Shown piece by piece: positions 15,440 through 24,943 of a stretch of DNA of 34,302 nt. The DNA comes from Actinomycetes bacterium (GTDB lineage Bacteria; Actinomycetota; Acidimicrobiia; Acidimicrobiales; Acidimicrobiaceae). Numbering within the stretch: the stretch's first letter is position 1; each line of letters starts with the position of its first letter. The notes below the pieces were generated by a model. It did no database searches. It was not told the DNA's origin and saw nothing but the letters and a program-made list of their open reading frames with translations. Position numbers and translations under genes: made by a program. Location: assembly GCA_021826315.1 (NCBI GenBank), contig JAKAZZ010000026.1, positions 1 through 34,302 on the forward strand. The letters are read 5' to 3'.

Positions 15440-15488
15440 TGGTGGGCCCACCGGGACTCGAACCCGGGACCAAGGGATTATGAGTCCC
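15440..15488 (+). repeat. Left attachment site (attL), orphan copy of tRNA 3' part
   Basis: Forty-nine bases identical to 24895-24943, covering the tRNA 3' end with CCA, T-arm, variable loop and anticodon arm up to the 5' side of the anticodon stem. After 15488 the sequence diverges, so the tRNA copy is incomplete. This is the mark of site-specific integration into the 3' part of a tRNA gene. Confidence 0.93.
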
Positions 15489-15949
15489 TAAAATAACGTC
15501 TTACGTAGCTGCTTTAGTGTCTCAATGCGTCGCATTTCTGCAGTTCAAAATACACTTTATTTGGAATAATGAAACGTAGTTCAATGCGTTGAGACAAATT
15601 TATACAAAAATGTTGGGTTAAATGTTGGGTTAAATGTTGGGTTAAAGTTTTTCCAAATTCATTGGATGATGGATAACTTTTGATGGCAAAGTGGACCACA
15701 CCCAATATGTCGCGAGTTTAATTGACAAGAATGTACACGAGTGAAAAGTCTCAAAAGGTATATTGGAACTTGGCTTGCAAAGCAATAGTGGCGTTTCACA
15801 CGGCAAGCTACTAGGAGTGGTAGCGGGCGTATTTTCAAGTCGCTGCTAAGATAAAAGCGCACTACGTAGCTTTCTAGCACGACGGATAAAACAGGGCTGT
15901 GCTCAAAATATACCAGGTTTGATGTATCAAGACAAAGAGGCTGCTAGAA
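15489..15949. other. Left end of the element, non-coding
   Basis: No gene seen. Apart from the arm-site-like repeats at 15610-15645, it has only short overlapping frames with no ribosome binding site. Confidence 0.5.
15610..15645 (+). repeat. Three 12-bp direct repeats, candidate integrase arm sites (left)
   Basis: Three exact, contiguous copies of ATGTTGGGTTAA at 15610, 15622 and 15634. The same word in the same orientation occurs twice near the other end of the element (24839-24861). Position just inside att, repeat length and orientation match arm-type binding sites for the N-terminal domain of tyrosine integrases; that role is inferred. Confidence 0.85.
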
Positions 15950-16237
15950 GTGGAAGAGAACGAAAAAAAGTTCGGAGACGCACTTTACGAACGCATGTAC
16001 GGTGTGGGATTATCATTGGAGGCTCGTGATGATTTACCTGAAAATGCTCAGGAATTTGCTAACGCAGTGTATCGAGCAGTTTCCGATTCCTTGTCAGGAG
16101 CTCTTCAAAAAGCCGGCAAGTCAAGCAGAGAGATAGAAGACGTGTTTGCATTGCTTAGCGAAGCACTCATCAATCTGAATAACCATCAAGGTCGACATCC
16201 GGACGACAAAAGACCCAATGACCAGACAAGAATTTAG
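15950..16237 (+). CDS. Hypothetical acidic protein of the element
   Basis: A 95-residue, mostly helical, charged protein without membrane segments or recognisable motifs (EENEKKFGDALYERMYGVG at the start, VYRAVSDSLSGALQKAGKSS in the middle, a polar tail). It starts with GTG at 15950, with AAGAGG about 12 bases upstream as a reasonable ribosome binding site. Codon use and composition look like a real gene. It is the first gene inside the left att site and points inward. I do not recognise a family. Confidence 0.6.
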   Translation: MEENEKKFGDALYERMYGVGLSLEARDDLPENAQEFANAVYRAVSDSLSGALQKAGKSSREIEDVFALLSEALINLNNHQGRHPDDKRPNDQTRI

Positions 16238-16720
16238 CCGAATTTCGTAATAGCGGAACCAAAGTCACACAACCTATACAGATAGAGATATGTGGGAATA
16301 GTTTCGTATACTTTTTAGGGGCTAAACTAAAACTGATCAAAATTAGCAGGCGAATTCCAAGTGAGCCAACCCTTTCCGCTTTCGCCTTATACGAGACCTG
16401 TAAAGATTCAGTTTATAATCCCATCACTAAACATAGTGGAATCGCACTTAGGTTGACAGCAGCAAAGTTGCCACGTAAGCCTTCGAGTTTTATGTAGAAA
16501 AGCCACATCGATCAAAGACGACTAAAGGGCGCTATGTCAAATCGTTGACGTATCGCTCCGTTAGGGCTCGTTAGGTGGCGATACCAGCTAAACCAATCGC
16601 AAAATTCCACTTTAGCTAGCTCAGCGAAGCCGTGAACGTTGAATACAGTCCGGTTTTGTTTTCCCCCACGCCAAGAAAACAACTGTTCTAATGCACCAGT
16701 TGAATTTTGATCAATAGTGA
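16238..16720. other. Stretch without a supportable gene inside the element
   Basis: A minus-strand frame of 81 codons (16512-16757) contains FSWRGGKQNRTVFNVHGF and WYRHLTSPNGAIRQRFD, which look protein-like and might be a transposase-end remnant. There is no start signal and I cannot name a family. Otherwise empty. Confidence 0.35.
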
Positions 16721-17143
16721 CGATGTGCGTTCCATGAAGCGGATCAGAAGCACGCAAACCTCGAGCCTATTGGTCCAGGGAAAATTGACGGTAAGGCAGA
16801 TGACGCAAAGTACCTCCAAGAGATTATCGAAAAGCTCAATGATCTTTTTGGGGACGTTGCACCTTTGAATGACAAGATTGCTTTTGCTAATCAAGTTGCA
16901 GCCATTACACAAGAAAACGACGTGGTAATGGCACAGATCGAAAACAATTCACGCGAACAAGTCATGAGAGGCAATTTGCCTGGTGCTGTTCAAAATGCTG
17001 TAGTGCGTGCTCTTACTTCGCATCAGAAGCTAGCGACAGTACTACTCATGGCAGATAAACAAGCTATGGCCGCTTTCATTGAACTAATCTACGAATTAGA
17101 CAAAGATCACCGCGAACTTGAAGCTGGTGACCTAGGTGCTTGA
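16721..17143 (+). pseudogene. C-terminal fragment of a type I restriction HsdR subunit
   Basis: The frame is open from just after stops at 16718-16720 to TGA 17141-17143. It reads like the extreme C-terminus of HsdR: ADDAKYLQEIIEKLNDLFG (about 16796-16852), then FANQVAAITQENDVVMAQIENN, REQVMRGNLPGAVQNAVVRAL and a tail ending at the natural protein end. HsdR is normally about 1000 residues with a nuclease and two helicase domains; only about 140 residues remain and no hsdM or hsdS is present in the window. A TTG at 16865 could start a 92-residue product, but no ribosome binding site supports it. It is immediately followed by the ISL3 remnant. Confidence 0.75.
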
Positions 17144-17151
17144 TCAATTGA

Positions 17152-17760
17152 ATCTACCCGGATGTATTGAATCTACCCGGCATAGAACCGGTAGATTTAC
17201 GGAGCGAGAACGGCTTTATCGTCATCGTTGCTAAATCCACCTTCGATGAAGTCCCGTTATGCCATGTTTGTAGTCAAAAAATGCACCGTCACGGCAACCG
17301 AACGTCAGTAGTGGCAGATACGCCGTTGCAGATGCAACCAGTCCGTCTAGAGATCGTTAGACAACACTATCGGTGCGTAACTTGTGAGTCTATTGTCACT
17401 CCTGAATTACCTTTGTCAGATGAGATGGAGGGCCATTAAAAAGACTTGTAGATGCCATTCGGGAGCGATGTCTAAGCACGACTTTTCATTCAATGTCGGA
17501 ACAAACCGGTCTAGCGGTAAATACCACTAAGAATATTGCTCTCGACCTAATCGGCGACCTCGAACAAACAGTTCACTTTGAGACCCCCGCCATAATGGGT
17601 ATAGATGAGGTCATGATAGGTGGCGATTACCGATGCGTCATTACCAACCTCGCTAACAACAACATATTTGACATTCTCGCGATGCGCACGCAACAGCATC
17701 TTATACGTATTTCGCAAGATTACAAGATAAAGATCAAGTCGAATGGGTAGGATCGGTTTT
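17152..17760 (+). pseudogene. ISL3-family transposase remnant, frameshifted and truncated
   Basis: The first frame (to 17439) holds the ISL3 zinc-binding N-terminus: LCHVCSQKMHRHGNRTSVVAD, then QHYRCVTCESIVTPE with its second CxxC. After a frameshift near 17440 the reading continues as RLVDAIRERCLSTTFHSM and SEQTGLAVNTTKNIALDL (helix-turn-helix), then MGIDEVMIGGDYRCVITNL, the first Asp of the DDE domain. A further shift near 17700 gives YFARLQDKDQVEWV. The remaining half of a transposase of about 400 residues is absent. A 15-bp duplication, ATTGAATCTACCCGG, at 17147 and 17166 lies at its start. It is inactive. Confidence 0.82.
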
Positions 17761-23578: not shown

Positions 23579-23593
23579 TGCTGTATTCGCATT

Positions 23594-24817
23594 TTAACCG
23601 AGGAGTTCACCGATATGGTAGGCCGCCTTCCGGTCATACTCTGGAACATCATCCGTGTAATGCATTGCCATGTGAATTGTAGACCATCCTAAACGGGACT
23701 GCTTTTGTCTATCCGAAACTATTGCGTCAACCGCTGTAGCCTGGAAGTGACGCATGGAATGTAGGTGAATCTCTTTCGACACTCCTGCTGCGTCGCGGAT
23801 ACGGCTGAATGCGTGAGAAACACTGTCAGGGTGCGGCGGCGTTGTTCCGCTTGGTTCAAATGAAAAAACATAGCAATCCTCGCTAAGGCAATTTCCAGAA
23901 CTTTGAGCAAATTCCGCTTGTGTCGCTTTTAGTGATCGAAGTTCATTCAAGGTCGTGCTGTCAATTGCAAGTCGTCGGTTTCCTGCTACCGTTTTCGTTC
24001 CCTTGGTTATGATCTTGCCATTCAAACCAACGACTGCTTTCGAAATTTTAATAAGCTCCTGAGTAAAGTCTATGTCACCCCATTGCAAGGCGCAAAGTTC
24101 ACCCCTTCGCATGCCAGTGGCCGCAATCACACGCACCATGCATCTGTATCTAATGTCGAACTGCTTTGAAGCTTCCAAAATCAAATTCACTTCCTCGGTT
24201 CGTGGAGCGCGAATATGCTTTGCTGGATCAAGATCCGAGTTTCGAAGTTCCGATTTAGCGACAGGATTTTTCAGTGTGTCACCGCTCCACTTTTCAGATA
24301 ATTTGCATATGCGCCCCAAGATTGCCCTAGTTTGTCTTACTGATGACATTGATAGTTTCCCCGAAGACACCGAATCGCTAGAGCTCCCCTTTCGAATAAT
24401 CGACTTTTGAGAAAGCTCATTCAAAAATCTTTCAATATCGAGCGTTGTTAGTTCGACGATCTTGCGCTTGCCAATTGAGCTCTCGATATGGTTACGAATT
24501 ATACTTTCGTAACGTTTTGTGGTCGTTGGGGATAAGTTTGGCCACTCCATTTCCTTCCACAACTCAATCAGCTGGTTAACTGTAATCTTTTCCCACTGTA
24601 TTCCCTGGTCATTACGTCTGACACGCTGATCACCGAGCTCAAGCTTCCACCGCATTAGTTCCGATTGTGCTTCCCTAAACGAACCCTTGAAGCGCCTGTG
24701 TTTGTGAATCGGTGTGTTTTTTTCATTTCGCCCGACATAAACGCGAAGCTCCCAAACGTTAGGCGCTTTTGCTAGCCTAATTCCAGGCGTACTCTTACCG
24801 ACAGATTTAACCGCCAT
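23594..24817 (-). CDS. int: Tyrosine-family site-specific integrase
   Basis: A 407-residue integrase. An arm-binding N-terminal region (about 1-75) is followed by a SAM-like core-binding domain (about 77-190) and the catalytic domain. Catalytic residues are visible. The Arg is in TGMRRGEL (R237), the Lys is near ITKGTKT (about 272-275), and HLHSMRH gives H353 and R356. Trp replaces the second His in RLGWST (W378), and the Tyr is in MAMHYTD (Y387). Trp at that site is acceptable in this superfamily. The ATG at 24815-24817 is 78 bp from the att core and faces away from it. The gene is convergent with rep-xis. It would recombine attP with the tRNA 3' end. Confidence 0.95.
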   Translation of the reverse strand: MAVKSVGKSTPGIRLAKAPNVWELRVYVGRNEKNTPIHKHRRFKGSFREAQSELMRWKLELGDQRVRRNDQGIQWEKITVNQLIELWKEMEWPNLSPTTTKRYESIIRNHIESSIGKRKIVELTTLDIERFLNELSQKSIIRKGSSSDSVSSGKLSMSSVRQTRAILGRICKLSEKWSGDTLKNPVAKSELRNSDLDPAKHIRAPRTEEVNLILEASKQFDIRYRCMVRVIAATGMRRGELCALQWGDIDFTQELIKISKAVVGLNGKIITKGTKTVAGNRRLAIDSTTLNELRSLKATQAEFAQSSGNCLSEDCYVFSFEPSGTTPPHPDSVSHAFSRIRDAAGVSKEIHLHSMRHFQATAVDAIVSDRQKQSRLGWSTIHMAMHYTDDVPEYDRKAAYHIGELLG

Positions 24818-24838
24818 CTAAACCCCCAATAACCTCAT

Positions 24839-24861
24839 TGTTGGGTTTTATGTTGGGTTAA
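24839..24861 (+). repeat. Two 12-bp direct repeats, candidate integrase arm sites (right)
   Basis: TGTTGGGTTT at 24839 and TGTTGGGTTA at 24851, period 12, are the same word and orientation as the three copies at 15610-15645. They lie between the int start and the att core, where they may also overlap the int promoter. That gives a natural route to autoregulation (inference). Confidence 0.75.
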
Positions 24862-24894
24862 TTCTATAAGCAATTCGCATAATGCCATCTGAAC

Positions 24895-24943
24895 TGGTGG
24901 GCCCACCGGGACTCGAACCCGGGACCAAGGGATTATGAGTCCC
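24895..24943 (+). repeat. Right attachment site (attR) within the tRNA
   Basis: Identical over 49 bp to 15440-15488. The tRNA sequence continues intact to 24971, so this side keeps the functional tRNA while the left side has only the duplicated 3' portion. Confidence 0.93.

What the first reader, a model, noticed from the sequence alone, without database searches (positions are those of the whole stretch)
15440..24943. AICE-type integrative element in a CAT-anticodon tRNA, possibly in an unusual host lineage
The window shows 49-bp att repeats derived from a tRNA, plus Int, Xis, a RepSA-like HUH initiator and an FtsK-like translocase. Known family knowledge: this set defines actinomycete integrative and conjugative elements, described mainly from Streptomyces, Frankia and relatives. 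If the host is an acidimicrobial actinobacterium, as the lower G+C content and gene content suggest, the element would extend the known range.
Basis: partly seen in the sequence, partly recalled or inferred. Interest (0 to 1): 0.75.

Follow-up and report, generated by a model that had tools for sequence, protein, structure and literature searches.

The report
tRNA-borne conjugative element in acidimicrobial bacterium
A 9.5-kb mobile DNA element, of a kind known mainly from Streptomyces-like bacteria, sits in a tRNA gene of an acidimicrobial actinobacterium; related elements are found in its relatives, with a differently placed integrase gene and a different DNA pump, and this copy has a broken replication gene.

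Summary
An exact 49-bp repeat (15440-15488 / 24895-24943) bounds 9.5 kb; the right copy is the 3' end of an intact tRNA-Met(CAT). Inside are tyrosine integrase, excisionase, RepSA, an FtsK-type motor and a Pra-like regulator: the gene set of actinomycete integrative and conjugative elements (AICEs).

The host is in the same family as a named Ferrimicrobium MAG. RepSA occurs in 13 of 42 genomes of that family and 18 of 395 sampled from the class. Ghinet et al. 2011 reported Acidimicrobidae devoid of AICEs.

New points: (1) rep is split between two frames here, open in 10 relatives. (2) The motor groups with plasmid TraB, not with the motors of most Streptomyces RepSA elements, and lacks TraB's last ~100 residues. 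(3) int faces rep in 12 of 14 acidimicrobial loci, 0 of 36 others. (4) 12-bp tandem repeats, probably integrase arm sites, lie at both ends and recur beside other tRNAs. (5) Other contigs show the same tRNA without this element.

Verdict: a real AICE of a divergent acidimicrobial group, probably replication-defective here. New variant of a known kind.

The parts
15440..15488 (-). left att copy (fragment of the tRNA-Met 3' end)
   Evidence: exact 49-bp match to 24895-24943
24895..24943 (-). right att copy inside the intact tRNA
24895..24971 (-). tRNA-Met(CAT), integration site
   Evidence: ARAGORN
15611..15645 (+). three tandem 12-bp repeats, putative Int arm sites, left end
   Evidence: 5 TGTTGGGTT in the window, 0.28 expected, 0 of 100 shuffles reach 5
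24839..24861 (+). two tandem 12-bp repeats, putative Int arm sites at the int-side end, next to a weak promoter-like match
23594..24817 (-). tyrosine integrase, converging on rep-xis
   Evidence: PF00589 1.1e-21; orientation
23282..23578 (+). excisionase-like HTH protein (Xis)
   Evidence: TIGR01764 7.1e-07; HTH_17 1.4e-09
21887..22237 (+). RepSA, N-terminal part, first frame
   Evidence: PF20199 positions 2-78
22180..23319 (+). RepSA, C-terminal part with HxH motif and conserved tyrosines, second frame
   Evidence: PF20199 positions 96-429, 3.9e-78; invariant H137, H139, Y213, Y217 in 10 sequences
20513..21886 (+). TraB-type FtsK/SpoIIIE motor
   Evidence: PF01580; tree; model pLDDT 83.2 matching FtsK motor structures
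20087..20476 (+). SCO3933/Pra-family regulator (probable start ATG 20147, by eye)
   Evidence: NF051478 1.5e-10, 41.2 bits, below cut-off; same family before ftsK in 6 of 7 relatives tested
18559..19419 (-). cargo ORF of unknown function
   Evidence: no Pfam, NCBIfam or PHROG match; no relative in the 41 other family genomes
17167..17439 (+). ISL3-type transposase zinc-ribbon remnant
   Evidence: PF14690 25.9 bits, cut-off 25.5
17797..18129 (+). small ORF with a sub-threshold Aca2/YdiL-like match
   Evidence: PF08965 15.4 bits, cut-off 23.8

Best explanation
This is an integrated AICE-type element of the RepSA class, belonging to a divergent group of such elements in Acidimicrobiaceae. Inferred cycle: Int recombines the 49-bp core in the tRNA-Met 3' end with the circular element, held by its N-terminal domain on 12-bp arm repeats at both ends; Xis with Int excises it; a Pra-like activator turns on the motor, rep and xis genes; RepSA starts rolling-circle replication of the excised circle; a membrane-anchored TraB-type FtsK motor pumps double-stranded DNA to a neighbouring cell. 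Unlike pSAM2, int is turned round out of the rep-xis operon, and its putative promoter abuts the arm repeats, so Int probably represses its own gene. In this copy rep is split by a frameshift, so autonomous replication is probably lost. Shown: anatomy, att sites, relatives, motor tree, orientation, repeats, frame split. Inferred: excision, arm binding, autoregulation, activation by the Pra-like protein, replication and transfer.
For: att and tRNA; gene families; Pra-like gene before ftsK in 6 of 7 relatives tested, SCO3933 being a Pra homologue (passages of PMC8584621); RepSA in 13 of 42 family and 18 of 395 class genomes; the same tRNA without the element in G008:C35, identity ending exactly at 24895, and in G011:C20; motor tree and tests; arm repeats; int orientation; element far more alike than flank between genera.
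Against: rep is split and no other RepSA was found in the 90%-complete assembly, so this copy may be immobile. Window Rep and motor sit on long branches, and the Rep tree gives no supported place for window Rep nor one clade for Acidimicrobiaceae Reps. No clean empty twin: the left flanks of window, G008 and G011 differ. The assembly is a draft with a second, orthologous copy of the right flank. No direct evidence of excision or transfer.
Confidence: 0.85

Rival explanations
1. A decayed, immobile AICE remnant: once mobile, now fixed, with rep broken and an insertion-sequence scar, in an old tRNA island.
For: Frame-split rep; ISL3 remnant; hipA in the left flank interrupted by an in-frame stop; decayed copies in several relatives; long branches of Rep and motor.
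Against: int, xis, motor frames, exact att and arm repeats are intact; G008:C35, otherwise identical over 9,408 bp, lacks the element.
Confidence: 0.4
2. The rep split is a sequencing or assembly error and the element is fully functional.
For: One-base difference only; all catalytic-motif residues aligned are kept; draft assembly.
Against: Nothing in the held data shows an intact version of this copy; other decay lies nearby (hipA stop).
Confidence: 0.3
3. The 12-bp repeats are operators of a regulator, not integrase arm sites.
For: They abut a putative int promoter: a TANNNT hexamer lies 1-7 nt upstream in 8 of 9 elements with the CCCAACA motif.
Against: Copies also lie at the far ends of window, L025 and L032; the distance from the tRNA end is the same in 6 of 12 elements with different tRNAs; the variant motif goes with lower-scoring Ints (L021, L023, L034).
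Confidence: 0.15
4. A prophage or phage satellite with an FtsK-like gene.
For: Integrase, excisionase and FtsK-like genes also occur in phages.
Against: Rep has no match in 50,697 phage records and one in viral contigs; the scans of element ORFs returned no structural or packaging gene, apart from a weak terminase-profile match of the motor (27.5 bits).
Confidence: 0.03

Closest known systems
pSAM2-like AICEs of Streptomyces and Streptosporangiaceae
   Same: tRNA att sites, tyrosine Int, Xis, RepSA, Pra/SCO3933-family gene before an FtsK-type motor (pSAM2 itself was not fetched)
   Different: motor from another clade; int inverted against 36 of 36 other loci; no GntR/KorSA-like gene among the ORFs scanned here, while L167 has one
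Streptomyces conjugative plasmids pSVH1 and pSG5 (TraB)
   Same: motor clade and motifs
   Different: those motors are 738-772 aa against 457 aa and have about 100 more C-terminal residues; the ORF before traB in pSVH1 does not match the Pra family; no RepSA match in L166
RepSA elements with TraB-type motor outside Acidimicrobiaceae (L044 Solirubrobacter, L079, L083, L076; also L105 Actinomadura)
   Same: RepSA plus TraB-type motor
   Different: int in the same direction as rep in L044, L079, L083 and L105; no int found next to rep in L076

Membership tests
AICE (criteria of Ghinet et al. 2011, section 5) | Int, Rep and FtsK-type Tra together in one region | tested here: met
   Rep present but frame-split
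AICE (criteria of Ghinet et al. 2011, section 5) | int not between rep and tra, next to an att site | tested here: met
AICE | att direct repeats, one being the 3' end of a tRNA gene (typical for tyrosine-Int AICEs) | tested here: met
AICE | functional replication initiator | tested here: not met
   rep split between two frames in this copy; 10 relatives open; a sequence error is not excluded
AICE | no T4SS or relaxase | tested here: inconclusive
   none in the ORFs scanned, not every ORF scanned; Mob_Pre search had a silent control
AICE | excision, circle, transfer of double-stranded DNA | not testable with these tools
   no reads or cultures
pSAM2 subfamily | motor in the clade of Streptomyces RepSA-element motors | tested here: not met
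   (p-AU 3.6e-07); pSAM2's own motor was not in the tree, and the groups were named after the tree was seen
pSAM2 subfamily | rep-xis-int as one operon | tested here: not met
   int on the opposite strand; operon in pSAM2 from passages of PMC8584621
TraB family | motor domain groups with plasmid TraB | tested here: met
   21-row clade 96/97; FtsK-motor fold
TraB family | C-terminal clt-reading domain (role recalled) | tested here: not met
   last ~100 residues of pSVH1 TraB have no counterpart; model ends in a tail helix

The most novel reading that the evidence does not exclude
Acidimicrobiia carry their own AICE group that keeps Pra, RepSA and Xis but has a TraB-type motor without the DNA-reading end, and whose integrase gene has left the Pra-controlled operon for a self-repressed promoter built on Int's own arm sites. 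DNA choice for transfer would then rest on another protein, such as Rep or the Pra-like protein, and integration would be controlled apart from replication and excision.
Probability: 0.4. Interest if true: 0.65.

Novelty: new variant of a known kind. Interest (0 to 1): 0.5.

Why it matters
Ghinet et al. 2011 (275 genomes) called AICEs confined to Actinomycetales, bar one Bifidobacterium element, and absent from Acidimicrobidae. Here RepSA elements are in 13 of 42 genomes of one acidophile family and in other families of the class, one element being nearly alike in two genera; contigs of three relatives also carry restriction-modification genes near the motor, though the far att sites were not located. 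This offers a candidate route of gene exchange, and candidate integration vectors, for iron-oxidising acidophiles. The mixed motor and inverted int also show which AICE modules can be exchanged and which stay together.

Tried and rejected
Chromosomal FtsK: rejected; the chromosomal gene is another locus (G000:C48), used as outgroup in the tree. Phage origin: rejected. Programmed frameshift in rep: no canonical heptamer. clt-like octamer clusters: none stood out beyond the arm repeats. Cargo ORF 18559-19419: no family, no relative in the 41 other family genomes or in viral contigs, useless model of pLDDT 33.8; a nuclease-like look is by eye only. Mob_Pre search: control silent. Loci with no int found within 3 kb of rep were not counted for orientation; L037, L038 and L041 were dropped as exact copies of L025, L024 and L023. 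An earlier count gave 38 other loci; the recount is 36. Trees used subsets: 46 of 74 motors and 59 Rep rows after dropping named loci, largely Streptomyces and Streptosporangiaceae. In other Acidimicrobiia families int is inverted in only 2 of the 8 loci with an int near rep (L197, L201), so inversion is not class-wide. ARAGORN inside the script printed nothing and was not used.
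Full report
Observation. The 49-bp repeat is exact at 15440-15488 and 24895-24943. ARAGORN finds one tRNA in the window, tRNA-Met(CAT) at 24895-24971 minus, so the right copy is its 3' end and the left copy a fragment. Between them lie int (23594-24817 minus), xis (23282-23578), RepSA, an FtsK/SpoIIIE protein (20513-21886) and a SCO3933-family gene (20087-20476; 41.2 bits, cut-off 80).

Rep is broken here. Its N part (profile 2-78) and C part (96-429) are in different frames. The gap between conserved blocks is 53 nt here and 54 nt in L024, L025 and L026 (my arithmetic), so one base appears lost between 22172 and 22224. 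No canonical slippery heptamer is present. In the family search 10 loci have an open frame over most of the RepSA profile; others are cut or decayed. The only RepSA matches in the own assembly (89.92% complete) are these two parts.

Junctions. G008:C35 (L145) is 100% identical to window 24895-34302, 9,408 bases, and identity stops at the att boundary; beyond it lies a Fic/Doc region instead of the element. G011:C20 (L144) holds the tRNA with a collinear right flank and no element; its left-flank match (15032-15233) also occurs elsewhere in that genome (L151). The left flanks of window, G008 and G011 differ, so none is a clean empty twin. In G003:C36 (L146) three further att-like copies lie on one side of the same tRNA: a hotspot. 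G000:C57 (L149) carries a second tRNA-Met with an int fragment and an orthologous right flank: a duplicated locus or a mixed bin.

Host. The window's genome and 41 others form one family. Three contigs from it are identical to named records: L024 to a Ferrimicrobium sp. MAG, L025 and L023 to MAGs titled Actinomycetes bacterium. NCBI places Ferrimicrobium in Acidimicrobiaceae. The own genus name was not determined.

Range. RepSA is in 13 of 42 family genomes (5 of 8 genera) and in 18 of 395 class genomes (17 over the cut-off; 14 of 183 genera); both counts include the own genome. Ghinet et al. 2011 (PMC3218068: section 5 read whole; passages; outline) state that Acidimicrobidae appeared completely devoid of AICEs. 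Five searches of the held library showed no later report in what they listed; one search listed 25 of 1,284 papers, and of the listed papers only PMC3218068 and PMC12659273 were opened (passages). The library lacks most subscription papers, so a report elsewhere is possible. Outside the class, RepSA relatives include Solirubrobacter deserti (L044) and a contig titled Chloroflexi MAG (L045).

Motor. In a tree of 46 motors the window protein lies in a 21-row group (96/97) with acidimicrobial, Solirubrobacter and other motors and plasmid TraB (pSVH1, pSG5, pFP11), apart from a 17-row group (100/100) of Streptomyces, Streptosporangiaceae and allied RepSA-element motors, which I call pSAM2-type by inference; a third group (100/100) holds Pseudonocardiales motors, pGRS1 and pS2b. 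Putting the window in the 17-row group is rejected (p-AU 3.6e-07), as is joining the acidimicrobial-type set to it (p-AU 0.004); the groups were named after seeing the tree, and the window's end branch is long (1.51) with odd letter make-up. RepSA with a TraB-type motor is not confined to Acidimicrobiaceae (L044, L076, L079, L083, L105). The protein has two N-terminal hydrophobic stretches and no counterpart of the last ~100 residues of pSVH1 TraB. The model (pLDDT 83.2) matches FtsK motor structures (best E 7.1e-22). That the missing end reads clt is recalled; passages of PMC4170104 say TraB recognises 8-bp repeats at clt.

Rep tree. Of 59 rows, window Rep has no supported place and a long branch (1.54); Acidimicrobiaceae Reps need 4 changes, so they are not one clade. 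The case for an acidimicrobial group rests on motor, int and repeats.

Regulator. SCO3933 is a homologue of pSAM2 Pra, which activates repSA, xis and int (passages of PMC8584621). The ORF directly before ftsK matches this family in 6 of 7 acidimicrobial loci tested (56.8-74.9 bits, all under the cut-off of 80), in L167 and L169 (112 and 120 bits), and not in pSVH1. L167 has a GntR gene beside it; L024 and L026 have HTH/DUF5919 proteins at borderline scores.

Orientation. Of 14 Acidimicrobiaceae loci with int within 3 kb of rep, int is on the opposite strand in 12 (not L032, L039); of 36 other loci in 0 (three duplicates removed; L021 and L023 are near copies; a few of the 36 are MAGs of unsure class). 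In other Acidimicrobiia families it is opposite in 2 of 8.

Arm repeats. TGTTGGGTT occurs 5 times in the window, all at the element's ends; 0.28 expected, 0 of 100 shuffles reach 5. Pairs 12 bp apart of a looser pattern were found 13 times in 15 loci (229,089 bp), against a block-shuffled mean of 0.4 and a largest of 2 in 30 shuffles; they lie between tRNA and int or at the window's far end. L064 and L089, scanned, gave none, nor did L022, L031 and L035. Of 12 elements laid out by tRNA, the copies start 37 and 49 nt from the tRNA end in 6 (window, L024, L025, L026, L029, own second copy); of 9 with the CCCAACA motif a TANNNT hexamer precedes by 1-7 nt in 8 (not L029), a pattern chosen after looking; the 3 with the CCCTACA variant (L021, L023, L034) lack it. 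The other L032 integrase has no such pair. Copies also lie at the far ends of L025 and L032. I read them as Int arm sites that also shut the int promoter; the promoter in the window is a weak consensus match (1 found, 0.5 expected).

Mobility. L021 (window's genus) and L023 (another genus) are 94.9% identical over 3,897 nt up to the tRNA; L021 and L034 are 85.4% in the element and 64% in nearby host DNA. This speaks for transfer between genera, with the caution that these are draft genomes.

Verdict. A real AICE of a divergent acidimicrobial group, likely replication-defective in this copy. It works like pSAM2 in its parts but is not of the pSAM2 subfamily by motor clade or operon structure.

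Noticed in passing
12452-13726: HipA-like gene in two pieces in the same frame, interrupted by a stop; a 424-aa homologue is open in L146.
   Followed up: partly
14222-14802: PemK/MazF-type toxin with MazE antitoxin just left of the left att copy; a Fic/Doc gene lies beside the same tRNA in L145.
   Followed up: partly
15032-15233: Dispersed unit with an 18-bp perfect hairpin (15190-15228), similar copies in G011 (C9, C20) and partly in G008:C42.
   Followed up: no
L149 (G000:C57) 1-8000: Second tRNA-Met with an int fragment and an orthologous copy of the window's right flank in the same assembly: duplication or mixed bin.
   Followed up: partly
L022, L026, L035: Type IIG (L022, L026) and type I (L035) restriction-modification genes, and a GajA/OLD-like ATPase (L026), on the same contigs as the motor genes; far att sites not located.
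   Followed up: partly
L146 (G003:C36) 5109, 7526, 10901, 14755: Three att-like copies on one side of the tRNA-Met: stacked islands at the same site.
   Followed up: partly
L045, L044: RepSA on a contig titled Chloroflexi MAG (possibly misbinned) and a RepSA plus TraB-type motor set in Solirubrobacter deserti.
   Followed up: no
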